NCBI GenBank assembly: GCA_010672165.1
Contig: JAAHHN010000015.1
Location: forward strand, 1 to 56,992
Direction: 5' to 3'
Origin: Spirulina sp. SIO3F2
GTDB lineage: Bacteria; Cyanobacteriota; Cyanobacteriia; Cyanobacteriales; Spirulinaceae
DNA length: 56,992 bases
The notes under the pieces are model-generated. The model had not been told where the DNA came from, ran no database searches, and saw nothing but the letters and a program-made list of their open reading frames with translations. Both the position numbers and the translations under genes were made by a program. The first letter of the stretch is position 1, and every line of letters begins with the position of its first letter. Of this stretch, positions 8,236 through 43,850 are shown piece by piece.

Positions 8236-10476
8236 ATGACAACTACACATAAGCCGATTGTTCAAGAACGTCGTCAATATAATACTTGGGTTGCCAATGA
8301 GACCTTAGAAGACTATTCCCTTCGCTATGCCCCGCAATCTTTTCGGAAATGGTCAGGACTTTTGATTGCCAATACTGCAATTGGGGGAATTTCTTTCCTT
8401 GCATTAGAAGCAATTGGTGCCTCACTGCTGATTAGTTATGGCTTTGTGAATGCATTCTGGGCAATCCTGGTTGTTGGGGTCATTATCTTTTTAGCCGGTC
8501 TGCCTATTTCTTACTATGCTGCTAAATACAATATTGATATGGACTTGCTCACTAGAGGTGCAGGTTTTGGCTATATCGGCTCAACAATTACATCATTAAT
8601 TTATGCATCCTTTACCTTTATTTTCTTTGCCCTAGAAGCGGCCATTATGGCACAGGCATTAAAGCTCTATTTTCACTTGCCACTCTCTTGGGGATATCTG
8701 CTATGTTCATTGATCATTATCCCCCTCGTTTTTTATGGTGTGACCTTAATTAACCAATTACAGTTGTGGACACAACCCATTTGGCTATTTCTAATGGTTG
8801 TACCCTATGTTTTTGTTTTGCATAAGGAGCCAGAATCTATCAACTATTGGCTACATTTTATAGGGAGTTCAGCCAGTGGAGTAGGATTTGATCCGCTTTT
8901 GTTTGGAGCGGCGGCTACAGTTTCGTTCTCGTTGATTGCTCAGTTGGGGGAGCAGGTCGATTATTTACGTTTTTTGCCGACACAACACCCCGAAAATCGC
9001 TTTCAATGGTGGTTTGCTGTGCTGGGTGCTGGCCCCGGTTGGATTGTTTTGGGCGTTGCCAAACAGCTAGGTGGTTCTTTTTTAGCAGTACTTGCTCTGG
9101 CTCATGGTGTGAGTCTTACCGATGCTAAAGAACCCATCCAAATGTATCTAGCTGGATTTGCAGATATGTTTGCCAATCCAGATATCATACTGGCAGTTGC
9201 AACCCTATTTGTGATTATTTCGCAAATCAAGATCAATGTTACGAATGCCTACGCGGGTTCTTTAGCGTGGTCAAACTTTTTTTCCCGTTTAACCCATTCC
9301 CATCCCGGACGTATTGTTTGGCTGGTGTTCAACATTGCGATCGCGCTGTTGTTAATGGAGTTGGGTGTATTTAGCACCTTACAAGGGGTACTGGGTCTAT
9401 ATTCCAATGTGGCGATCGCTTGGGTAGGGGCCTTAGTTGCAGATTTGGTAATCAATAAACCGCTCAAACTAAGTCCCTCTTATATTGAGTTTAAGCGAGC
9501 CTATCTTTACAACATCAATCCGGTCGGGTTTGGATCGATGGCGATCGCCTCAGTCATTTCTATTTTGGCCTTTGTAGGCGTGTTTGGCGTTTATCCCCAA
9601 GCCTACGCACCCTTTTTGGCTTTAGGAATTGCGTTCATTTTGTCGCCACTGCTCGCTTGGTTTACCCAAGGCAAATACTACATTGCCCGAGAAAACCGAT
9701 TACAAACAACCGTTAATTTAAGCCCACCACTATTAACCTGCGTGATCTGTGAGCAAGACTACGAGCCTGCTGATACTGCTCATTGCCCAGTTTATGACAG
9801 CTATATTTGTTCACTGTGTTGCACATTAGAAGCCCATTGTCATGATCAATGTAAAACCTCAGAGACCCAGAACGAAAAAACAATTCTAGCTCTCTTTGAA
9901 CAAAAAGCTTTGCCGTTATTAAGCTTACGAGTTATCCGTTTTCTAGGATCTTTTCTATTCTTATCTAGTACTTTGGGTGCTGTGTTCGGACTGGTCTTCT
10001 ATTTTGGTGTGCAGAAATCTAGCCAGTTACAACCCGAAGTCATTGCAATTATTCTCAATCAGTTTTATGCACTCTACAGCCTAATTTTAGTGTTATGTGC
10101 CGTAGCAGCTTGGTGGTTTGTCTTAAGTGAAGAGAGCCAAGAACTGGTTGAGGAAGAACTTGACAAGCAAAATTTGCAACTCCAAACTGAGGTTCAAGAG
10201 CGGCAGCTGGCCCAAACTGCCCTCCAAGACTTAACCCACCAACTAGAGATGCGAGTTGAGCAACGAACGGAGGAACTCTCAGACACGTTACAAACCCTGC
10301 AACAGGCACAAACACAGCTTGTACAAACTGAAAAAATGTCCAGTTTAGGGCAGTTGGTTGCAGGTGTTGCCCATGAGATCAATAATCCAGTTAACTTTAT
10401 CCACGGTAACATCACCCATGCAACGAACTATGTTGGTGATTTACTGGCATTAATTAAAGCGTATGAAGGTGAATAA
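8236..10476 (+). CDS. NCS1-type permease fused to a sensor histidine kinase, truncated by an IS
   Basis: The preserved product has 746 residues. Residues 1 to about 480 form a complete NCS1 (cytosine/purine/allantoin permease) domain with around 12 membrane helices. Next is a Cys-rich stretch (CVICEQDYEPADTAHCP, then CSLCC and CHDQC) that could bind zinc. Two more membrane segments and a coiled coil (about 635-700) follow. The kinase dimerisation helix is VAGVAHEINNPVNF, with phospho-acceptor His713. The protein then stops after KAYEGE because an IS630-family element has inserted at TA 10474-10475, making TAA. The ATPase domain is missing and is not found beyond the IS, so autophosphorylation is impossible, although the permease part may still work. 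Confidence 0.85.
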   Translation: MTTTHKPIVQERRQYNTWVANETLEDYSLRYAPQSFRKWSGLLIANTAIGGISFLALEAIGASLLISYGFVNAFWAILVVGVIIFLAGLPISYYAAKYNIDMDLLTRGAGFGYIGSTITSLIYASFTFIFFALEAAIMAQALKLYFHLPLSWGYLLCSLIIIPLVFYGVTLINQLQLWTQPIWLFLMVVPYVFVLHKEPESINYWLHFIGSSASGVGFDPLLFGAAATVSFSLIAQLGEQVDYLRFLPTQHPENRFQWWFAVLGAGPGWIVLGVAKQLGGSFLAVLALAHGVSLTDAKEPIQMYLAGFADMFANPDIILAVATLFVIISQIKINVTNAYAGSLAWSNFFSRLTHSHPGRIVWLVFNIAIALLLMELGVFSTLQGVLGLYSNVAIAWVGALVADLVINKPLKLSPSYIEFKRAYLYNINPVGFGSMAIASVISILAFVGVFGVYPQAYAPFLALGIAFILSPLLAWFTQGKYYIARENRLQTTVNLSPPLLTCVICEQDYEPADTAHCPVYDSYICSLCCTLEAHCHDQCKTSETQNEKTILALFEQKALPLLSLRVIRFLGSFLFLSSTLGAVFGLVFYFGVQKSSQLQPEVIAIILNQFYALYSLILVLCAVAAWWFVLSEESQELVEEELDKQNLQLQTEVQERQLAQTALQDLTHQLEMRVEQRTEELSDTLQTLQQAQTQLVQTEKMSSLGQLVAGVAHEINNPVNFIHGNITHATNYVGDLLALIKAYEGE

Positions 10477-10547
10477 GTAGCCCGACCTAAAAAAGTCGAG
10501 GTATCCTGAAGTCTATCAGGAAACCAAGAGAGAGGACTTGCGTACTT

Positions 10548-11033
10548 ATGGGAATGCGTTTAAGGGTCTTTCTGAGCGCAGAGGAAGACAGGACACTGTG
10601 GGAGTTAAGACGAGCCCCAACAGTACCGCAAAGAGTAAAAGACCGTGCCGAAGTGGTACGAATGAATAGTAGAGGGGACTATGTGGAGACCATAGCGAGC
10701 TACATGAAATGGCATGTAGAGACAGTAAGAGACACGCTAAAGCGATGGAAAAAAGGAGGTTTGGGCGGATTGTGGGAAGCGACAGGGCGTGGGCAGAAAC
10801 GAACCTGGGAAGAAGCAGACCTGGAATATATCGAGCAGGTGTTACGAAGTGAGGAGCGAACGTATAGTAGTGTGCAACTAGCAGAGCGATTAAAGCAGGA
10901 GCGCCAAGTGAGCTTGAGTCCCGCCTATCTCAGACGGGTGCTCAAAAAAAGGGGATTATCTGGAAGCGAACTCGGCACAGTCATCGCCAAAAGCAAGACC
11001 CAGAACAACGAGCAATTAAGCAAGCGGACTTAG
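10548..11033 (+). CDS. IS630-family transposase, N-terminal part (frame 0)
   Basis: The product has 161 residues as read. It contains the helix-turn-helix DNA-binding half (RVKDRAEVVRMNSRGDYVETIA, then VRDTLKRWKKGGLGGL) and a second winged-helix-like segment with SPAYLRRVLKKRG. At 10944-10950 there is a run of seven A followed by G. A -1 slip there joins this frame to the catalytic half, and the joined reading (KKKGIIWKRTRHSHRQ) restores the usual family sequence. The out-of-frame tail after the slip site is therefore not the natural C-terminus. The fused reading is 1071 nt, or 356 residues. Confidence 0.85.
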   Translation: MGMRLRVFLSAEEDRTLWELRRAPTVPQRVKDRAEVVRMNSRGDYVETIASYMKWHVETVRDTLKRWKKGGLGGLWEATGRGQKRTWEEADLEYIEQVLRSEERTYSSVQLAERLKQERQVSLSPAYLRRVLKKRGLSGSELGTVIAKSKTQNNEQLSKRT

Positions 11034-11035
11034 AG

Positions 11036-11617
11036 ATGTTAGAGTTAGCGGCTGCTAACGGAGAAATTGACCTGTTGTATGGCGATGAATCGGGTTGCTG
11101 TCTCTGGAGTGACGTGGGCTACAGCTATTACTTTCGTGGTGAGCAGAAACGTCAAGAACAAACCAGAAAGCGAGGTAAACGTTTGAGTATTTGTATTTTA
11201 GGGTTATGGCAACCGTTGGTAAATTTTGTCTATGCCTTGGTGCTCGGTGGGTTCACCAGTGAAGATTACATCGCAATTATGGATGCTCAAGCTCAAGAAG
11301 CAGCTCAAGTGCTGGAGAGCACTGGGCGCATTCGGGTGATTGTCCAGGACAATGGTTCTATTCACAAAAGCAAAGTTGTCCAGGCCAAATGGCCGGAATG
11401 GGAAGCCCAAGGTCTCTATCTGTTTTTTCTGCCTCCTTATTGTTCTGAGATGAATCCGATTGAAGGTGAATGGCGGCAGCTCAAACGTGACGAGCTCGCA
11501 GGACAGATGTTTGAGCTGGAAACTGAGCTGGCTTATCATGTTGTTCTCGGTTTGGAAGCACGGGCTCAAAAGCAGGGTCACTCGACTCAATACTTTCATG
11601 TCAATTTGGCTTCATGA
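11036..11617 (+). CDS. IS630-family transposase, C-terminal DDE part (-1 frame)
   Basis: The product has 193 residues as read, but is normally expressed as the end of the frameshift fusion. The three catalytic acids are visible: Asp in LLYGDESG, Asp in VIVQDNGSIHKS and Glu in SEMNPIEGEW, the DDE triad that cuts and joins DNA at TA targets. No residue of the triad is lost, so the element may be active. The listed ATG start is internal to the fusion and probably not used. Confidence 0.85.
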   Translation: MLELAAANGEIDLLYGDESGCCLWSDVGYSYYFRGEQKRQEQTRKRGKRLSICILGLWQPLVNFVYALVLGGFTSEDYIAIMDAQAQEAAQVLESTGRIRVIVQDNGSIHKSKVVQAKWPEWEAQGLYLFFLPPYCSEMNPIEGEWRQLKRDELAGQMFELETELAYHVVLGLEARAQKQGHSTQYFHVNLAS

Positions 11618-33421: not shown

Positions 33422-35221
33422 CTAGTTATTTTGAGCAGAACGGATATGCAGACTGTTTTGATGTTCCACCTGAATCGCATGGGGATGGGGTGAGGCTGTG
33501 CCCTTTTGCTTGAGAAGCATAGCTAAAAGGGTCTTGGCGTTTTGCTCGGCTTGATGCTGCTCGGTTCCGTCGAACCAATAACATTGCTCTGGAAAACTAG
33601 GAAACTGCACCAAGTACTGCGCTTGTTCTGGTGACCACAGGATGATGCTCCTGTATTGTCGGGGCTGAGGCTGGCCCGTTTTGGCATCTACAAAATTGTT
33701 TTTCCCCGCTTCTCGGAGGGCATCTACATCCGCTGCCCGTGAAACCGAAAGGGGCACTGTGGATTCAATTTCAGTTACCAACAGATCGGTGTCCAACCGT
33801 TGCCGGAGAGAAAGCGCACGATAGAGCGCCGAGACGATCGCCTGTTCGATTTCAGCCCCGCTATAGCCTTGAGTCACTTGCACCAAACGGTTGAGATCAA
33901 ATTTATCAGGAGCTTGCTGATGCGATCGCAAATGGATCGTCAAAATTGCAGCACGATCCTGCTCATCGGGCAAATCCACAAAGAAAATCTCATCAAATCG
34001 TCCTTTCCGTAGTAACTCTGGCGGAATTTGGCTGAGATCGTTAGCTGTTGCTACCACAAACACCTCTTCGGACTTCTCTTGTAGCCAGGTTAAAAACGCC
34101 CCAAACATGCGGCGACTCAGGCCGCCATCACTCCCCCCGCCGCCGGATGCACCGAAACTTTTCTCAATTTCATCAATCCAAAGCACGGTTGGTGCCATCG
34201 ACTCTGCTAAGGTCATCGCCCGCCGAAAATTCCGCTCCGACTCGCCCACATATTTGTCGTAGAGGCGGCCCGCTTCAAGCTTAATCAAGGGTAAACGCCA
34301 TTCTCGGGCGATCGTCTTGGCCGCCAGGGACTTACCACACCCCTGTACCCCCACAATCAAAATGCCCTTGGGTGGGGGTAATCTTAACTCTCGCGCTTCG
34401 GCGGAAAACCCGACCCGTGCCCGTTTGAGCCACTGCTTTAGGCCCACAAACCCCCCTAAATTTGCCTGATTTTCTGAGGCAGGGAAATATTCTAACAAGC
34501 CATCTTCTTGGATCACTTGGGCTTTGCGGTGCAGAATGCTATCGATATCATCAGCCGTGAGTTTGCCATCATCAAGGGCGGCATAGGCCACCACTTGTCG
34601 AGCTTGGGTGAGGGTCATGCCGCTCAGGGCTTGCACCAGTTGCTTAAGTTCTTGGTCTTGTAGTTGCACTTGAACCCGTTGGCTCCGCTGATTGAGCGAT
34701 CGCACTACCTCCGAAACAACTTTGTAGAGTTCGTCGCGGCCAGGGAGTTTGAGGTCGTAATAAACCGTCTCGTGGGCGATCGCACTGGGAATTTCTAGGG
34801 AACTTGCGGTTAGCACCAATGCCCCGCGATTGTGTCGGAAAATCCGTGCCAGCTCACGTACTTGACGCGAAATCTCATCATCTTTGAGATAGTAGCCAAA
34901 ATCTTTGAGTAGGAATACCGCTTTCCGGTTGAGCTTTTCGATGTAGCGGAGGGCATCAAGGGGTTTTTGGGTGCCATCGTAAGTGGTGGCTTGTTTAGCA
35001 TTAACCGGGGCAGACATATCCATTTGCGGTGCAAATTTGCTGCCAGGTGAAAGGTAAAGTCCCCGACTCACTGTCCATTCAAACAGCGGAATCTTCATCT
35101 CACCCGTAGCAGATTTAAGCAAGTTCTCCACCCGTTCTTCTTCAACGGTTTCGATCGCAATAATCGGATGAAACGATTGAATTAGGGTCTTGATCTCATA
35201 AACGCTGGTGGCTAGGCTCAT
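33422..35221 (-). CDS. Ycf46-like AAA+ ATPase
   Basis: The product has 599 residues. An N-terminal helical domain of about 250 residues (IIAIETVEEERVENLL, then AVFLLKDFGYYLKDDEI) precedes a single AAA+ module. Walker A is GVQGCGKS at 291-298 and Walker B VLWIDE at 346-351, followed by a glycine-rich loop (SGGGGSDGGLSRR) and the arginine-finger region LLRKGRFDEIF. This is the layout of plastid Ycf46 and its cyanobacterial relatives. It is longer at the C-terminus than typical members of about 500 residues; the extra part holds FPSFPEQCYWFDG. The substrate is unknown. Confidence 0.88.
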   Translation of the reverse strand: MSLATSVYEIKTLIQSFHPIIAIETVEEERVENLLKSATGEMKIPLFEWTVSRGLYLSPGSKFAPQMDMSAPVNAKQATTYDGTQKPLDALRYIEKLNRKAVFLLKDFGYYLKDDEISRQVRELARIFRHNRGALVLTASSLEIPSAIAHETVYYDLKLPGRDELYKVVSEVVRSLNQRSQRVQVQLQDQELKQLVQALSGMTLTQARQVVAYAALDDGKLTADDIDSILHRKAQVIQEDGLLEYFPASENQANLGGFVGLKQWLKRARVGFSAEARELRLPPPKGILIVGVQGCGKSLAAKTIAREWRLPLIKLEAGRLYDKYVGESERNFRRAMTLAESMAPTVLWIDEIEKSFGASGGGGSDGGLSRRMFGAFLTWLQEKSEEVFVVATANDLSQIPPELLRKGRFDEIFFVDLPDEQDRAAILTIHLRSHQQAPDKFDLNRLVQVTQGYSGAEIEQAIVSALYRALSLRQRLDTDLLVTEIESTVPLSVSRAADVDALREAGKNNFVDAKTGQPQPRQYRSIILWSPEQAQYLVQFPSFPEQCYWFDGTEQHQAEQNAKTLLAMLLKQKGTASPHPHAIQVEHQNSLHIRSAQNN

Positions 35222-36614: not shown

Positions 36615-37475
36615 CTAATCATCGTCATCCCAAAGCATTTCAACCTCGCTAATGGGCTTGAGGCTATTAGATCGAATGCTAAGGCAAAGCTGACATTGAC
36701 ACAAACGTGTTTCTTTCAGTCTCATGAGCTGATGAAGTCCATCTGTCGAAATTGAATACTCATCTTGTAGGATTCCCCATAGCTCATCATCATACAGACA
36801 AAAAACATCCTCATCCAAGACTGCAAAGATCACATTATCGTTAAAGTATTGACGGTCAAGAACCCAAATCCCTCGCTCTAAGCTTTGTTCGAGGTGATTA
36901 TCCATTAGTTTGTATAGCTGCTTTAAATCCTCATGTGATATGGAATGATCCCCATTCCTGAATCGGCACATCAGAGGATGATTATCTGTTAACAAAACTT
37001 CCTTGCCAATAATAATAAATAACTCATCTTGACATGAATTATTTGATTCATAGTAAATCACTAAAGCATCATCACCCATACATTCAGATCTGATTCCATC
37101 AATATGCTCAAGACCTAGGGGTATAAATATTGGATAAAAACCACAGACTTTAAGTAGCTCACAAATTTTCTCTTGACATTCAGGGATCGCCAGCATTGTT
37201 CGATACCAATGTATACCCAAGCTATCCCAGCCTCCAACGTGACCACTGAACATAAATTTAATCCAATCTTGGTTGTAATCACATTTGCCGTCCATAATGC
37301 AGTCGATATCTTCCGCATAGCCTATCTCTTGCTCACGACTCATTTGAGCGATGAGATATTGATGTAAAAAGCCATAGACCTTGGCAACTTGTTCATCAAA
37401 GCAATATTCATCACAAGAAGCATCAAGCTCTTCACTCAAACGAGTGATCGGTAAAGAAAATCCGAACGTGCCCAT
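36615..37475 (-). CDS. Unknown protein, tandem paralog with CxCxxC motif (copy 1)
   Basis: The product has 286 residues, is acidic and soluble, with no family I recognise. It shares most of its length with the gene just upstream (37513-38388): an N-terminal QVAKVYGFLHQYLIAQMSR, the middle WDSLGIHWYRTMLAIPECQ, LEHIDGIRSE, and the C-terminal DELWGILQDEYSISTDGLHQLMRLKETRLCQCQLC. The CQCQLC motif may bind metal. It lies 37 bp downstream of copy 2 in the same direction. By eye it is AT-rich compared with the neighbours, suggesting acquisition. Confidence 0.7.
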   Translation of the reverse strand: MGTFGFSLPITRLSEELDASCDEYCFDEQVAKVYGFLHQYLIAQMSREQEIGYAEDIDCIMDGKCDYNQDWIKFMFSGHVGGWDSLGIHWYRTMLAIPECQEKICELLKVCGFYPIFIPLGLEHIDGIRSECMGDDALVIYYESNNSCQDELFIIIGKEVLLTDNHPLMCRFRNGDHSISHEDLKQLYKLMDNHLEQSLERGIWVLDRQYFNDNVIFAVLDEDVFCLYDDELWGILQDEYSISTDGLHQLMRLKETRLCQCQLCLSIRSNSLKPISEVEMLWDDDD

Positions 37476-37512
37476 AAACTATTAACCTCCAGTCATACAA
37501 TCTATCTAGACT

Positions 37513-38388
37513 TTAAACGTAATCCTTCCAGTTAACTTCAATCTCCTTGAGAGGCTTGAGACTTTTGGAACGGATACTATGACAAAGCTGACATTGACAT
37601 AAGCGTGTTTCCTTCAATCTCAATAGCTCACGAAGACTTTCAGTTGAGATTGAATATTCATCCTCTCGAATTCCTCGTAGTTCATCATCTCGCCTGAGTA
37701 AAAAGATATCCTCATCCAAAACTGCAAAGACGATGCTGTAGTCACTAAAAGGTTTATAAGCAAATGTCCAAAACTCTTGATCTGGATTCTGCTCTAGATA
37801 ATTAGAAAATTCATCATCTTTCCATTTGGGCAAAACTCGAAAACCCTCTTTAGAAATAAAATGCTCACCTTCTGGGAGTTGCTGAAAGTAGTCACAGTTT
37901 CCAACGTGTGTAAGATGATCTTCTTTTATGCCGAAAAGATCATTCCTCGCTGTGAAAGGTTTGTACTTTGAGAGCCAGACAGGTTGATCGATCAATTCAG
38001 GTCTAATTCCATCTATATGTTCTAAGGTTAGGGGCGAGAATAGAGGACGGAGACCACATGGCTTGAGGAGCTTACTGATTTGATTCTGGCATTCAGGAAT
38101 AGTGAGCATCAACCAATACCAATGCAGACCAAGATCGTCCCAGCCTGGAACGTAGTCTTTGAAACCAAAATAGATTTCATGCACACTATATCTGTGATAC
38201 ATCCACATAATTTCATCGATCCCTTCTGCCCAGTAGACTTCTTGCTTACGACTCATTTGAGCTAAAAGATAAGTCTCTAGAAACCCGTATAATTGCGCAA
38301 CCTGTTTATCAAACAAATCCTCATCAAAGGGAATCCTAGAATCTTTTTCAAGCGGAATTATCTTTAGGGAAAAGCCAGTTCCACCCAT
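37513..38388 (-). CDS. Unknown protein, tandem paralog with CxCxxC motif (copy 2)
   Basis: The product has 291 residues. It is paralogous to 36615-37475, with the same blocks: QVAQLYGFLETYLLAQMSRKQE, WDDLGLHWYWLMLTIPECQNQI, LEHIDGIRPE, and ELRGIREDEYSISTESLRELLRLKETRLCQCQLC. The centre (about 140-215) is the divergent part, which suggests specificity or partner choice there. It is first in a two-gene operon. No immunity, export or nuclease signature is visible. Confidence 0.7.
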   Translation of the reverse strand: MGGTGFSLKIIPLEKDSRIPFDEDLFDKQVAQLYGFLETYLLAQMSRKQEVYWAEGIDEIMWMYHRYSVHEIYFGFKDYVPGWDDLGLHWYWLMLTIPECQNQISKLLKPCGLRPLFSPLTLEHIDGIRPELIDQPVWLSKYKPFTARNDLFGIKEDHLTHVGNCDYFQQLPEGEHFISKEGFRVLPKWKDDEFSNYLEQNPDQEFWTFAYKPFSDYSIVFAVLDEDIFLLRRDDELRGIREDEYSISTESLRELLRLKETRLCQCQLCHSIRSKSLKPLKEIEVNWKDYV

Positions 38389-38579: not shown

Positions 38580-38912
38580 TCATCCCTCATCCACCAAATC
38601 CTCTGCCGTCAATGGGGCTTGCCGACTGCTCCGCACATGCAAAATAAACACCACATCTGTACGCACCACAAACAAAATCCGATAGGCTGACCGACGTTTC
38701 CCATGCAGAAGCTGTCGCACCTCCTCTGAGAACACATCATTCTCAATCGCCAGAGCACAACGCTGAGGCTGCTTCTGCAACGTTGCCAACTTATTCATCA
38801 AACCCCGAAACCAGCGATCTGCGTAGTCAGCAGAATTCCATTTTCGTAGCCACCGATAGGCTGTTTCAATTTCAACTTCAGCCTGCTGTGTAATCCGAAC
38901 CTGGAATATCAT
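38580..38912 (-). CDS. ParE/RelE-type toxin
   Basis: The product has 110 residues. The pattern QAEVEIETAYRWL...WFRGLMNKLATLQKQPQRCALAIEN...RQLLHGKRRSAYRILFVV...VFILHVRSSRQ is the RelE/ParE superfamily. It follows a Phd/YefM-like antitoxin gene, overlapping it by 35 bp, in the usual antitoxin-first order. Targets of the family are ribosomal mRNA or gyrase; ParE-like is favoured by the AYRILFVV core, but this is not certain. Confidence 0.85.
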   Translation of the reverse strand: MIFQVRITQQAEVEIETAYRWLRKWNSADYADRWFRGLMNKLATLQKQPQRCALAIENDVFSEEVRQLLHGKRRSAYRILFVVRTDVVFILHVRSSRQAPLTAEDLVDEG

Positions 38913-39186
38913 ATTTGTGCTGCATGTCCTGCTGAAAATCTTGGAGTGAACGAGTTCGTCCCGCTTCCACGTCTGCCAAACCTTGCTTAATTCCGGTGAC
39001 GGCCTCTAAATACTCAATCGTCTCTAACAATTTCTGATAAGCGGCGGCATCTTGCACCACTAACTCCGCTTGACCATTCACCGTCAAAACCATCGGTGCT
39101 CCGGTCTCTTTCATCTGATCAATAAACTCGGATGTGCGGCGCTTAAAGCTAGACAGGGATTGAATATCACGGGCCAGATTGAGCAT
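38878..39186 (-). CDS. Phd/YefM-type antitoxin
   Basis: The product has 102 residues. The N-terminal half (SFKRRTSEFIDQMKETGAPMVLTVNGQAELVVQD, then AYQKLLETIEYLEAV) matches the Phd/YefM DNA-binding domain. The C-terminal half (GLADVEAGRTRSLQDFQQDM) would wrap the toxin. It likely autorepresses the operon. It overlaps the toxin gene. Confidence 0.87.
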   Translation of the reverse strand: MLNLARDIQSLSSFKRRTSEFIDQMKETGAPMVLTVNGQAELVVQDAAAYQKLLETIEYLEAVTGIKQGLADVEAGRTRSLQDFQQDMQHKYDIPGSDYTAG

Positions 39187-40481: not shown

Positions 40482-40879
40482 GGGAGCTATTCGCAAGGTT
40501 GTGGGTCTGGTGGTTGGAGCAGCCCGCCACCAGTCCTCAATGAATCACATTATTCGATTTATGCAAGCCATTTGAAGCTTCAGTTTGTGGTTTCTCCTCT
40601 GGAGAGATGCGAATGCATTTATCGTTTGCTGGCATCTTGACCGCTGGCAGGCTGGAAGCCTGCGCTACGGAACATAACGGCAGCAAAATTTGTAAATCTT
40701 GTTGATTTCAGGGTCAATTCTAGTTATACTAAAGTGAGTTGAATAAATAAGCAATGAGCTGACGCACCCTCATTTCACCTCTTTGTGCCCAGCGATCGCT
40801 CCCAACTCAACTTTCTGTGTCCCTGTACGTCAGGGGCAATTGTTGTGCTGTTTTTTCTCCCAACCCATCAATTTTCGCC
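40482..40879. other. Divergent intergenic region, about 400 bp
   Basis: No convincing gene. It holds the chrA and PARP upstream regions and, at about 40650-40675, a short palindromic repeat (GCAGGCTGGAAGCCTGCGC). An in-frame start at 40817 could extend the PARP gene by 21 residues but lacks family support. Confidence 0.5.
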
Positions 40880-42172
40880 ATGACCACTGTTGCTACCGCA
40901 CCCACTGCTACCCAGCCCATCGCCAGTTGCACCCTGATTTACGTTGAAGTCGATGAAAACTCTAACAAAGTCTGGAAAGGCTTTCTCTGGCCCGACAACA
41001 CATTTGAAGCGCAGTGGGGACGGGTGGGGAAGAAGCTCCAGTGCAAAACCTATCAATTTAGTTCACTCTACATGGCACAACTTAAGTTTGAATCCATGAA
41101 ACGCGCCAAGCTGCGCAAGGGCTACACTGAAGCTCAAGTGGTTACAGAAGCCAATGTAGCCGTCTCGTTGAGCAACCGAGAACTCAAGGCGATCGCAGCC
41201 AAACAAATCCATCACGGCCGCGATCCCCGTGCCAAGCTACTGATCCAATATCTCGTCGAACAAAATATTCACCAAATTCTGTCCCAGACCCAGATCACCT
41301 ACAACAGCACCACGGGAACCTTTAGCACCCCCCTCGGTTGTGTCACCCCGAGCGCGATCGCCCAAGCCCGAGACTATCTTTGGCGGATTGCCTGTGCCCG
41401 CCGCAAAACGACCGACACGTTCCGGCAGTTGGTCAGTCAATATCTGCGCCTGATTCCCCAAGATATGGGTCACAAGCTAGATGCGGCGGTATTTCACAAC
41501 AAAAAAGAAATCCGGCGTCAGCATGATATTTTGGATGCCCTGGATGCGGCGGTGGAGGTGACGTTGCCTAAAGATGCCAAGCAGGATTTGTTCCATTGCA
41601 CAATCAATCGAGTGCCGGGCAGCACACCCGACGGCCGCCAAACCTTCCGCTGGATTCGCAAGCTCTATCAGTCCACGCTGAATCCGAACCATTACGCAGC
41701 AGATTACCAACTCTCGCGGGTGTATGAGGTGGAGATTCCTTCGATGGCTCAGGCGTTTGAAGCAAAAGCGGAGCAATTGGGGAATGTGAAGCTCCATTGG
41801 CATGGCACGAAAGCGGGCAATCTGTTAAGCATTTTGCACAAGGGGCTAATTATTCCGCCGCCGAGTGCGTCCCATTGCACAGGGCGGATGTTTGGCAATG
41901 GGATTTATGGGTCGGTGCAGTCAACAAAGTCGCTCAATTATGCAACGAATTATTGGTACGATTCGGGGGAGGATGAGCAGCGAATTTTTATGTTGTTGTG
42001 TGATTTTGCGTTGGGTAAATCGTATCGTCCGAAAACCTGGAGTCGATCGTTTCCGGTGCCGGGTTACGATAGCACAGTGGTGGAGCCAGGGGATGCGAAT
42101 GTGATGAATCAGGAGAGTATTGTCTATCAGGTTTCGCAGGTGAGTATTCGGTATTTATGTGAGTTTGTTTGA
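40880..42172 (+). CDS. WGR-domain PARP (poly/mono ADP-ribosyltransferase)
   Basis: The product has 430 residues. Residues about 15-90 form a WGR domain (VWKGFLWPDNTFEAQWGRVG, then QLKFESMKRAKLRKGY), which in eukaryotic PARPs binds DNA ends. A helical regulatory-like region covers about 100-270. The catalytic domain follows: LHWHGTKAGNLLSILHKGL, GRMFGNGIYGSVQSTKSLNYA and NQESIVYQVSQVSIRYL. These give the triad His308, Tyr343, Glu412, so NAD binding and even chain elongation are plausible. No macrodomain or glycohydrolase gene is seen nearby. The function is probably DNA-damage or phage related. Confidence 0.88.
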   Translation: MTTVATAPTATQPIASCTLIYVEVDENSNKVWKGFLWPDNTFEAQWGRVGKKLQCKTYQFSSLYMAQLKFESMKRAKLRKGYTEAQVVTEANVAVSLSNRELKAIAAKQIHHGRDPRAKLLIQYLVEQNIHQILSQTQITYNSTTGTFSTPLGCVTPSAIAQARDYLWRIACARRKTTDTFRQLVSQYLRLIPQDMGHKLDAAVFHNKKEIRRQHDILDALDAAVEVTLPKDAKQDLFHCTINRVPGSTPDGRQTFRWIRKLYQSTLNPNHYAADYQLSRVYEVEIPSMAQAFEAKAEQLGNVKLHWHGTKAGNLLSILHKGLIIPPPSASHCTGRMFGNGIYGSVQSTKSLNYATNYWYDSGEDEQRIFMLLCDFALGKSYRPKTWSRSFPVPGYDSTVVEPGDANVMNQESIVYQVSQVSIRYLCEFV

Positions 42173-42250
42173 GCCTCAAAATACCCGATATAATCTCACT
42201 ATGCCTGTAATCCGCTTGTCCTGATCCAGATAGCGTTTTAGCCCAATATC

Positions 42251-42514
42251 ATGACACCACTGTCTGCCGATACCCCAATCACGACGCTCACGTTCGGCGA
42301 TCTTGAAACCTTGATCGCCCAAATTGTGCAGCAGGAACTGCAACAGTACCGGCCGCCTGAACCGTCAACCTTCTTGGTCATCCCTGAGCAGACTTACGAC
42401 GAAACAGCGCCCTCTATTTTGCAAATCTTCGCTGATGCGGCTACCCAAGTTCCTGATGAAGATTGGGATGCAGTTCCTCAAGATGCCTCAGAGAGGTTTG
42501 CCCATGAAATATAA
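42251..42514 (+). CDS. Small acidic protein, possibly antitoxin-like
   Basis: The product has 87 residues. The N-terminus (ITTLTFGDLETLIAQIVQQELQQY) is a helix seen in several cyanobacterial small antitoxin-like proteins; the C-terminus is acidic (DEDWDAVPQDASERFAHEI). It overlaps the next gene by 11 bp, so the two are coupled. The toxin-antitoxin idea is a guess, because the partner is not a known toxin. Confidence 0.6.
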   Translation: MTPLSADTPITTLTFGDLETLIAQIVQQELQQYRPPEPSTFLVIPEQTYDETAPSILQIFADAATQVPDEDWDAVPQDASERFAHEI

Positions 42515-42965
42515 TCTCAGTTTCTCGCTGGATCTGAAGCAAGATGAGCAGGCGAATATGATCTACGAGCCAGAAAGCTTTATTGAAAAACCGATCTCTA
42601 TCTCTGTGCCCGATATCATTGCTAGCTTTGAAGACTTCATCCAGTCTTTTGATCATGTGTGTTTGGTTGAGCAACACTCCCATGATGCTTCACGGAAACT
42701 TCAGGGACTATCGGGGGATGTTTATTTCTGTTGGGCAAAAGAGCTAGATAAGACTGCTTTAGCAAAGCTCTGTGAAGATCTCGTCCATTATTTCAAGAAG
42801 TTCAATCTGAGCCTATCATCAGAGAAGTTTCTAGATAGTGAAGTGTCGCCACAGTTCTCGGGTTTACAGGAGGTGATTACTTTGCGTAATTATTTGGCGA
42901 GATATGCCAAGAGTGCAAAGAAGATGTATAAGAATGGCTATGTTTATGTTACGCCCATTGGTTAA
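42504..42965 (+). CDS. Unknown protein coupled to the small acidic protein
   Basis: The product has 153 residues from ATG 42504, chosen because the 60 codons upstream in this frame are a shadow of the preceding gene. The sequence mixes beta strands and helices (KYNLSFSLDLKQDEQANMIYEPE, VPDIIASFEDFIQSFDHVCLVEQH, ALAKLCEDLVHYFKKFNLSLS). No family is recognised. It is AT-rich by eye. The 3' end overlaps the convergent gene at 42962 by 4 bp. Confidence 0.65.
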   Translation: MKYNLSFSLDLKQDEQANMIYEPESFIEKPISISVPDIIASFEDFIQSFDHVCLVEQHSHDASRKLQGLSGDVYFCWAKELDKTALAKLCEDLVHYFKKFNLSLSSEKFLDSEVSPQFSGLQEVITLRNYLARYAKSAKKMYKNGYVYVTPIG

Positions 42966-43657
42966 CGTAACTCTTGCTCCCAACTTTCGATTGCAGCAAC
43001 AACACATTTTCCAATAAGGCTAGATTTCAAGGCTTCCAACGCTACACTCTTGGCTGCACGAATCGCTTTCTGTTTCCAAGCAGGTTTAGCTTCAATTTGC
43101 TCAACTGCTTGAATCGCCAAATTCATTTCTTCAATGGTTGTTATAGGAGGATTAGCATCAATCAACTGTTGCACTAATTCCTGTATTTCAGCAATAGCTT
43201 CATTCAAATCAGGATTATGAATATTACCAAAGTTCTGTACAGAGTTACGTGAATCAATATCTTTACCTGCTAAATTACCCTGAAAGTCACCACCAACGGA
43301 AATGCTGTTATCCACTGTCAAGCTTACAGGTGATTGTTGCTCATCTGTCATGGACTCGATTAAACGGATTCCTCGGCTTTCAAGGCGCACGTAACTAATG
43401 TGAGAAATCCAAAAATCAGGTACTCCAATATCTGTTGTTTCTTGGATTATTTTTTCTCCTTTGAGGGACGAACAAATATCTGCGACATCTTCTTTTGTCC
43501 ACTGTAAATCTGTACTCTGCTTTCTTAAATCCTCGTATAAAGTTTCGATTGGGATCTGTTTGTATATACTGCCACCTGACTGATAATACATCTCTAATAA
43601 GAGAGCTTGGCGTTTGGCTTTCTTTTGAGCAATGAACTGATGACTAGATTGGTTCAT
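42962..43657 (-). CDS. Unknown protein with winged-helix-like N-terminus and beta linker
   Basis: The product has 231 residues from ATG 43657 (MNQSSHQF); earlier in-frame codons look non-coding. Residues 1-110 resemble a winged-helix domain (KRQALLLEMYYQSGGSI, then VADICSSLKGEKIIQETT). Then comes a short strand-rich linker, VDNSISVGGDFQGNLAGKDI, of a type common in cyanobacterial signalling proteins, followed by a helical C-terminus (EAIAEIQELVQQLID...). It is possibly a regulatory or conflict-system protein. It is AT-rich by eye. I do not assign a function. Confidence 0.6.
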   Translation of the reverse strand: MNQSSHQFIAQKKAKRQALLLEMYYQSGGSIYKQIPIETLYEDLRKQSTDLQWTKEDVADICSSLKGEKIIQETTDIGVPDFWISHISYVRLESRGIRLIESMTDEQQSPVSLTVDNSISVGGDFQGNLAGKDIDSRNSVQNFGNIHNPDLNEAIAEIQELVQQLIDANPPITTIEEMNLAIQAVEQIEAKPAWKQKAIRAAKSVALEALKSSLIGKCVVAAIESWEQELR

Positions 43658-43850
43658 ATTGATTACATGTCTCACGATGAAGAGTCTTTCAGTATTATAG
43701 CCCTTCTGTTCTTTGAGTGCATCTCTACTTATACACTTAATTCTATGATCTTGAGTCAATGCTGAGTGGGCATTGCTCACCAATCAGAGTATCGGGCATT
43801 CTTAGATTGACACTAACTTTTAGACGTGTCACGACCTTAGTAACTGCTAG

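What the first reader, a model, noticed from the sequence alone, without database searches (positions are those of the whole stretch)
40880..42172. Bacterial WGR-PARP with a complete H-Y-E triad
Seen: a WGR domain joined to a PARP catalytic domain with His308, Tyr343, Glu412, the same triad as eukaryotic PARP1. Known: PARPs are sporadic in bacteria, and Glu at the third position permits chain elongation. No ADP-ribose-removing enzyme is adjacent. Inference: DNA-break-triggered ADP-ribosylation, perhaps a stress or abortive-infection response.
Basis: partly seen in the sequence, partly recalled or inferred. Interest (0 to 1): 0.72.

Follow-up and report, generated by a model that had tools for sequence, protein, structure and literature searches.

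The report
Cyanobacterial PARP with a stress-type promoter
A cyanobacterium carries a compact version of the enzyme that human cells use to flag broken DNA; the enzyme type is already known from bacteria, but its relatives appear to share a control switch with DNA-repair and stress-sensor genes, which suggests when it is turned on.

Summary
In detail: window 40880-42172 (+) encodes a 430-aa WGR / helical-domain / PARP-catalytic protein with His308, Tyr343 and Glu412. Its AlphaFold model aligns to DNA-bound human PARP1 over 372 residues. It is a new member of a known kind. Cyanobacterial PARPs are in print, and the triad is not special: it is intact in 102 of 102 aligned sequences, itself included. 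No eraser is adjacent, but the genome encodes a PARG with an intact signature elsewhere.

The new part is the promoter. All 13 cyanobacterial-type copies with a readable upstream region carry TTGA-N8-TCAA overlapping the -35 box (random windows: 4.3%). In relatives the same pattern lies upstream of XRE-repressor/IrrE-type-protease pairs in 5 genomes (7 of 53 non-PARP sites), of recA in one and of an ATP-dependent DNA ligase in another. I read the gene as a DNA-break-activated ADP-ribosyltransferase under an XRE-IrrE (DdrO/PprI-like) stress regulon.

Limits: the window's own site is weak (rank 39 of 55), the pattern is hardly commoner overall than its reversed control (55 against 45), and the XRE-IrrE pair could not be sought in this genome. 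Abortive infection is not supported. No activity was measured.

The parts
40880..42172 (+). WGR / helical regulatory / PARP catalytic protein, 430 aa
40925..41137 (+). WGR domain (residues 16-86)
   Evidence: Pfam WGR E 3.9e-9; G47 identical in 102 of 102 aligned sequences, R48 in 97 of 102
41216..41569 (+). helical regulatory (HD / PARP_reg-like) domain, about residues 113-230
   Evidence: Pfam PARP_reg below cut-off; helices in the model and structural match to PARP1/2 from residue 108-113
41639..42163 (+). PARP catalytic (ART) domain, residues 254-428
   Evidence: Pfam PARP E 1.3e-26
41801..41803 (+). codon of catalytic His308
   Evidence: aligned to the PARP1/2 WHG motif; 102 of 102
41906..41908 (+). 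codon of catalytic Tyr343
   Evidence: 102 of 102
42113..42115 (+). codon of catalytic Glu412
   Evidence: 102 of 102
40702..40730 (+). predicted sigma-70-type promoter TTGATT-N17-TATACT
   Evidence: a consensus match, not above chance on its own; arrangement conserved in cyanobacterial-type loci
40702..40717 (+). predicted operator palindrome TTGA-N8-TCAA overlapping the -35 box
   Evidence: only such palindrome in the window

Best explanation
The gene encodes a PARP1/2-type ADP-ribosyltransferase reduced to its core. The WGR domain binds a broken DNA end, the helical domain is displaced, NAD+ enters, and the protein ADP-ribosylates itself and probably neighbours at the break; a PARG elsewhere in the genome could remove the mark. 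In the cyanobacterial copies, transcription starts from a sigma-70-type promoter whose -35 box lies inside a TTGA-N8-TCAA palindrome. I infer that an XRE-family repressor binds the palindrome and that an IrrE-type (M78) protease relieves it under DNA damage or a related stress, as DdrO and IrrE/PprI do in Deinococcus, so that PARP is induced with recA-type repair genes. Shown here: the domains, the triad, the fold, the conserved palindrome, and the same pattern at XRE-IrrE, recA and ligase genes of relatives. Inferred: DNA activation, product, promoter use, identity of the repressor, and the inducing signal.
For: Domains, triad and fold. Related bacterial PARPs are DNA-dependent polymerases and pair with PARG (PMC5966428; PMC4245714; passages). 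PARG of the own genome carries GGG-X7-QEE. Promoter: TTGA-N8-TCAA in 13 of 13 cyanobacterial-type loci and 0 of 1 phage relative; control 4.3%; spacings 6, 7 and 10 in 0 of 14, spacing 9 in 1 of 14. Among seven divergent loci, pairwise identity is 0.59 in the 29-bp element and 0.32 and 0.30 in the 30 bp on either side. Absent from 13 of 13 phage and plasmid PARP genes tested. The strict pattern has 1 match in the own 7.3-Mb genome, at this gene (reversed control 1). In 39 genomes it has 55 matches. All 53 not at PARP were examined: 7 upstream of XRE genes followed by an IrrE-type peptidase gene in 5 genomes, 3 of KTSC genes, 2 of DUF5131 genes, 2 of coiled-coil-like genes, 1 of recA, 1 of an ATP-dependent DNA ligase (Pfam). 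A matrix trained on 11 PARP promoters ranks the held-out G003 PARP site 5th of 55 and the best XRE-IrrE site 10th.
Against: The window's own site is degenerate (TTGATTTCAGGGTCAA): rank 39 of 55 with the matrix and 4 of 8 dyad pairs. XRE-IrrE genes with the site were seen only in relatives without a PARP match; no search was left to look for the pair in the PARP-bearing genomes. The strict pattern has 55 matches against 45 for its reversed control in the same 39 genomes, so most single sites may be chance; of the 53, 14 lie inside frames of 150 aa or more (one of the KTSC sites among them) and 15 more have no gene of 80 aa or more within 350 bp downstream. recA was hit in 1 of 39 genomes. No operator upstream of PARG in G000 or G003, nor in the 12 macrodomain and ADP_ribosyl_GH loci held, of 18 such matches. 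The other XRE-IrrE sites rank 18 to 42. The only studied cyanobacterial regulator of this kind that I saw (NsrX/Alr1976 of Anabaena) is a FurC target reported to modulate nitrogen genes; the passages do not report a DNA-damage test (PMC12584617).
Confidence: 0.55

Rival explanations
1. A constitutively transcribed, horizontally acquired DNA-repair PARP: the enzyme is a break-activated ADP-ribosyltransferase, but the promoter palindrome is only a strong -35 region or the site of an unrelated regulator.
For: PARPs are sporadic: the family matched over its cut-off in 5 of 386 genomes of the phylum, and the full-length protein in 3 of 39 relatives, the own genome included. No conserved gene neighbour. 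The window's own palindrome is weak, and the pattern is barely commoner than its reversed control (55 against 45).
Against: The right arm TCAA lies in the promoter spacer, where sigma-70 makes no demand (recalled), yet is kept in 13 of 13 loci at one spacing; the same arrangement recurs at XRE-IrrE pairs in five genomes.
Confidence: 0.27
2. Abortive infection: phage-inflicted DNA breaks trigger runaway NAD+ consumption that kills the infected cell.
For: Enzyme chemistry permits NAD+ depletion; no eraser was seen next to the gene; toxin-antitoxin-type genes lie within a few kilobases.
Against: PARG, macrodomain and ADP_ribosyl_GH genes are in the genome; only a weak PADLOC match; no conserved neighbour in 15 loci; 141 viral stretches and 15 phage records encode relatives of the enzyme, which would be odd for a phage-triggered suicide gene.
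Confidence: 0.07
3. A mono-ADP-ribosyltransferase, or a transferase that marks DNA or RNA ends rather than making protein-linked polymer.
For: The stretch between the ALG strand and Glu412 is about 28 residues shorter than in PARP1 (33 against 61, read), in a region that in PARP1 forms the acceptor-site loop (recalled). In large phages PARP genes lie near DNA and RNA ligases more often than chance. The catalytic part of PARP4, a mono-transferase, matches with Z 25.4 over 279 residues, level with PARP1 catalytic chains.
Against: Characterised relatives HaPARP and CdPARP make polymer on DNA (PMC5966428, passages); Glu412 and Lys350 are invariant in 102 of 102.
Confidence: 0.11

Closest known systems
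Bacterial WGR-PARP_reg-PARP_cat enzymes, clade 2.4 of Garcia-Saura et al. 2018 (Pleurocapsales, Pseudomonadales, Vibrionales); HaPARP and CdPARP as characterised relatives
   Same: Same domain order and triad; the closest named hits here are Xenococcaceae, Pleurocapsa and related cyanobacteria at 58-63%, then Pseudomonas and Vibrio megaplasmids at 34-37%. That the window protein falls in clade 2.4 is inferred from these hits, not from that paper's tree.
   Different: A different cyanobacterium; activity not measured. The shared promoter palindrome is not in the passages and section read.
Human PARP1/PARP2 core (WGR-HD-CAT)
   Same: Fold over 372 residues (Z 26.8) and H-Y-E.
   Different: No zinc fingers and no BRCT; about 28 residues fewer before the catalytic Glu.
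DdrO-IrrE/PprI radiation and desiccation response of Deinococcus
   Same: XRE gene followed by an M78/IrrE-like peptidase gene; recA (one genome) and a DNA ligase (one genome) downstream of the same type of site.
   Different: Different operator sequence (Deinococcus RDRM recalled, not compared by a call); no cleavage or damage induction shown; the pair was not looked for in the own genome.
NsrX (Alr1976) and Alr1977 of Anabaena sp. PCC 7120
   Same: Cyanobacterial XRE regulator in a predicted operon with an IrrE-domain protease (PMC12584617, passages).
   Different: Reported role in nitrogen metabolism; its sequence was not compared here; a palindromic site is not described (the word stem 'palindrom' occurs 0 times in the main text).
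Phage and megaplasmid PARPs (e.g. BBA65562.1 of phage XacN1)
   Same: One place covers at least 80% of the query in 13 of 15 phage records and 15 of 27 plasmid records. Phage PARPs are noted in PMC7824862 and PMC4245714 (passages).
   Different: They lack the cyanobacterial promoter palindrome (0 of 13).

Membership tests
DNA-dependent PARP (PARP1/2/3-like, H-Y-E) | PARP catalytic domain | tested here: met
   Pfam E 1.3e-26, over cut-off
DNA-dependent PARP (PARP1/2/3-like, H-Y-E) | His-Tyr-Glu triad | tested here: met
   H308, Y343, E412
DNA-dependent PARP (PARP1/2/3-like, H-Y-E) | WGR domain | tested here: met
   Pfam E 3.9e-9, over cut-off
DNA-dependent PARP (PARP1/2/3-like, H-Y-E) | helical regulatory domain | tested here: met
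   Pfam just below cut-off, but the structural alignment to PARP1/2 catalytic fragments starts at residue 108-113
DNA-dependent PARP (PARP1/2/3-like, H-Y-E) | activity that depends on DNA breaks; poly(ADP-ribose) product | not testable with these tools
   needs purified protein
XRE-IrrE (DdrO/PprI-like) regulon | operator shared with the XRE-protease operon | tested here: inconclusive
   Met for the cyanobacterial PARP promoters as a set; the window's own site is a weak version (rank 39 of 55) and the pattern is barely commoner than its reversed control
XRE-IrrE (DdrO/PprI-like) regulon | XRE-protease pair present in the same genome | not tested
XRE-IrrE (DdrO/PprI-like) regulon | induction by DNA damage through proteolysis of the repressor | not testable with these tools
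   needs an experiment
LexA/SOS regulon | LexA-type box upstream | tested here: not met
   0 of 12 upstream regions for each of four recalled box patterns
Abortive-infection / known defence system | match to a known defence family, or conserved defence neighbours | tested here: not met
   PADLOC only WGR_XIII at E 0.0057 for the protein, nothing for four neighbours; no conserved neighbour in 15 loci; toxin-antitoxin-type genes nearby in the window are not shared

The most novel reading that the evidence does not exclude
Cyanobacterial PARP is an effector of an SOS-independent stress response run by an XRE repressor and an IrrE-type protease, whose operator is TTGAYT-N6-TCAA overlapping the -35 box and whose members include, in different genomes, recA, an ATP-dependent DNA ligase, KTSC and DUF5131 genes. 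This would be a bacterial PARP with a predicted physiological trigger: a host-tamed version of an enzyme otherwise common in large phages, where it lies near nucleic-acid ligases.
Probability: 0.5. Interest if true: 0.78.

Novelty: new member of a known kind. Interest (0 to 1): 0.52.

Why it matters
What PARPs do in bacteria is an open question: at least two enzymes have been characterised in vitro, and the 2014 survey calls the bacterial enzymes catalytically active orthologues of unknown function (PMC5966428, PMC4245714, passages). A conserved operator shared with a putative repressor/protease stress pair turns this into a direct test with one gel shift and one induction experiment. It would also link PARP to an IrrE-type response outside Deinococcus. 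That large phages carry the same enzyme near ligases gives a second route to its function.

Tried and rejected
LexA boxes: none in 12 upstream regions with four recalled patterns. Conserved neighbours: apart from frames inside the PARP gene itself, the widest family is in 3 of 15 loci (several loci have short flanks). Rfam: no match in 40497-42330. Leader fold: z -1.34, unremarkable. Recent transfer into the window: GC3 of the gene (0.594) is like that of chrA (0.599) and the pdhB-like gene (0.589), while the genes at 36615-38388 and 42962-43783 are at 0.33-0.37, so recent acquisition is not indicated. PARG co-occurrence: 2 of 3 PARP-bearing genomes against 8 of 386 in the phylum sample, which includes the own genome; too few, and two of the three are in one family. 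A macrodomain as a genomic partner in phages: 1 of 15 records within 10 kb, 1.47 expected. A single-protein scan of viral contigs with P0001 found no relative; the alignment scan did. NrtR as regulator: no usable motif in the listing. A tree with eukaryotic PARPs was not built; the direction of transfer between phage and host is open. The phmmer search with one XRE protein against solved structures did not list DdrO, and the protease had no match; neither decides anything.

Full report
OBSERVATION. The open frame at 40880-42172 (+) codes for 430 residues. Pfam finds the PARP catalytic domain (1.3e-26), WGR (3.9e-9) and, just below the curated cut-off, the PARP regulatory helical domain. PHROGs matches residues 27-429 to a phage family annotated 'polymerase' (3.9e-51). 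phmmer aligns the protein to human PARP2 and PARP1 from the helical domain onward; H308 and Y343 fall on the WHG and GKGIY motifs and E412 on NEYIVY. AlphaFold (28-row alignment; mean pLDDT 83.6) gives a WGR/helical/ART model, which aligns to DNA-bound human PARP1, 4dqy_C, over 372 residues with Z 26.8 and rmsd 3.4. H308, Y343, K350, Y354 and E412 are identical in 102 of 102 aligned sequences, the window's own included. In print it is intact in 27 of 28 bacterial PARPs (PMC4245714, passages).

DISTRIBUTION. The own genome has one PARP match. A full-length relative is in 3 of 39 relative genomes including the own one (two further genomes match in WGR only). PF00644 passes its cut-off in 5 of 386 genomes of the phylum (16 of 386 at E up to 0.001). 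In named genomes the nearest are Xenococcaceae, Pleurocapsa, Hydrococcus, Hyella, Waterburya, Zarconia and Prochloraceae at 58-63% identity (17 of 85 candidate stretches confirmed, five of them over the N-terminal, WGR-bearing part only). Elsewhere it is found on plasmids (27 records), most of them large, and phages (15 records; 141 of 183 IMG/VR candidate stretches, best 80 kept). In a tree of 81 proteins the 12 cyanobacterial-type rows form one supported clade (100/99). Its sister is a phage-borne PARP (L069, set among head genes by my reading) plus an acidobacterial MAG. Row L152 is labelled Gracilibacteria but is nearly identical to Hydrococcus and is probably mis-binned. Sampling is biased to viruses, and the root is a midpoint. 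Cyanobacterial PARPs were already in print: Stanieria (PMC4245714, passages) and Pleurocapsales in clade 2.4 with Pseudomonadales and Vibrionales (PMC5966428, section 5).

ERASERS. The own genome has one PARG_cat_microb match with the signature GGG-X7-QEE, four Macro matches (one partial) and three ADP_ribosyl_GH matches, all on other contigs. A possible writer-eraser pair is therefore present, though not adjacent.

PROMOTER. Upstream of the gene lies TTGATT-N17-TATACT (40702-40730). As a promoter hit this is not above chance. But TTGA-N8-TCAA, whose left arm is the -35 box, occurs upstream of 13 of 13 cyanobacterial-type loci (window, G003, G015 and ten named-genome loci, L152 among them) and not of the phage relative L069. 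Random 350-bp windows of the same loci have it in 4.3%; spacings 6, 7 and 10 occur in 0 of 14 loci and spacing 9 in 1 of 14. The 13 are not independent: several are close relatives. Among seven divergent loci the element is 59% identical pairwise, the 30 bp on either side 32% and 30%. None of 13 phage and plasmid PARP genes has it, and it is the only such palindrome in the 57-kb window. In the own genome the full pattern TTGAYT-N6-TCAA-N7-TANNNT has one match, this one; the reversed control also has one. The G015 PARP promoter has the palindrome but not the strict spacing to the -10 box.

REGULON. The full pattern has 55 matches in 39 genomes, against 45 for its reversed control, so the counts alone say little. 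I fetched all 53 sites not at PARP (the first 18 regions chosen by eye). Fourteen lie inside frames of 150 aa or more, and 15 more have no gene of 80 aa or more within 350 bp downstream. But seven lie upstream of a small XRE gene in five genomes (G008, G020, G031, G032, G037; two sites each in G020 and G032), each XRE gene followed by a gene with the HEIGHW motif and the Pfam IrrE N-terminal-like domain. Three lie upstream of KTSC genes (G001, inside an open frame; G015; G032), two of DUF5131 genes (G020, G032), two of coiled-coil-like genes similar by eye (G032, no Pfam match; G037, divergent from the XRE gene, not scanned), one of recA (G035) and one of an ATP-dependent DNA ligase (G013, Pfam 1.3e-7). 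With a simple model of 20 XRE genes per genome and 100-bp upstream windows, 7 of 53 has P about 2e-16 (the gene number is my assumption, and paired sites are not independent). A matrix trained on 11 PARP promoters ranks the held-out G003 PARP site 5th, the XRE-IrrE sites 10th, 18th, 24th, 32nd, 33rd, 38th and 42nd, recA 20th and the window's own site 39th of 55. The window's copy is therefore the weakest part of the argument, although some XRE-IrrE sites score as low.

READING. XRE-IrrE pairs are described as repressor-protease switches; in Deinococcus the protease IrrE/PprI cleaves DdrO after DNA damage and repair genes such as recA are induced (starts of abstracts). In Anabaena the pair NsrX-Alr1977 is predicted to be an operon; NsrX is reported to modulate nitrogen genes and the role of the protease is unknown (PMC12584617, passages). 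I infer that the cyanobacterial PARP is repressed by such an XRE protein and released under stress, most likely DNA damage. Searches of the held library for PARP in cyanobacteria and for this regulon listed no paper whose title or abstract start states this; they listed 10 of 1,493, 12 of 32, 8 of 598 and 10 of 87 papers, and subscription papers are not held, so absence from print is not shown.

PHAGE CONTEXT. In 40 viral records chosen from the 80 loci, DNA ligase is within 10 kb of PARP in 7 of the 17 that have one (1.92 expected, P 0.0014) and Rnl1-type RNA ligase in 7 of 14 (1.45 expected, P 0.00016), but a macrodomain in only 1 of 15 (1.47 expected). With one record per PARP cluster the median P is 0.037 and 0.017, the mean 0.061 and 0.026, so the signal is modest. 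General clustering of nucleic-acid genes in phages is an alternative. It agrees better with a role at nicks or ends than with abortive infection.

VERDICT. The gene is an ordinary new member of a known enzyme kind. The operator evidence is new to me and makes the function testable. Confidence: enzyme identity high; DNA activation good; XRE-IrrE control of the clade moderate; of the window's own copy lower.

Noticed in passing
L027 (G015 C37) 10328-11219: Two further head-to-tail copies (about 446 bp apart) of the last third of the PARP gene follow the intact gene; each keeps the whole H-Y-E half. A real tandem duplication or an assembly effect.
   Followed up: partly
L025 4965-5768 (Leptolyngbya boryana plasmid pLBX): A 267-aa WGR protein matching P0001 residues 14-226 only (WGR plus helical domain, no catalytic domain), downstream of DUF1257, DUF2997, AAA ATPase and Ycf34 genes.
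   Followed up: no
L081, L082, L086-L089, L091, L092, L111, L118, L122-L124, L126, L128, L130-L133, L138, L140, L142, L143 (viral contigs): In 23 of 93 viral, phage and plasmid loci the three ligase queries find a DNA or RNA ligase gene within the few kilobases held around PARP; a test on 40 whole records found closeness above chance.
   Followed up: partly
G415 (L079) 34773-35129: A macrodomain gene 1.3 kb from the phage PARP, the only one within 10 kb among 15 such records.
   Followed up: no
L060 7400-7993 (Pseudomonas sp. FeN3W plasmid): An RNA 2'-phosphotransferase gene, another NAD-using enzyme, is annotated directly after the PARP gene.
   Followed up: no
L158 6007-7286 (Hyella patelloides): The PARP gene is interrupted: two separate ORFs of 157 and 143 aa.
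   Followed up: no
L152: A PARP contig labelled Candidatus Gracilibacteria is nearly identical to the Hydrococcus copy and is probably mis-binned.
   Followed up: no
L182, L190, L197 (KTSC); L184, L201 (DUF5131); L181, L183 (coiled coil); L180 (BacA/UppP): Genes of unknown or other function with the XRE-IrrE-type promoter pattern in cyanobacteria: candidates for the same regulon.
   Followed up: partly
window 36615-38388: Two neighbouring similar low-GC genes (286 and 291 aa) without a Pfam match, beside Phd-like antitoxin and ParE-like toxin genes at 38580-39186.
   Followed up: no
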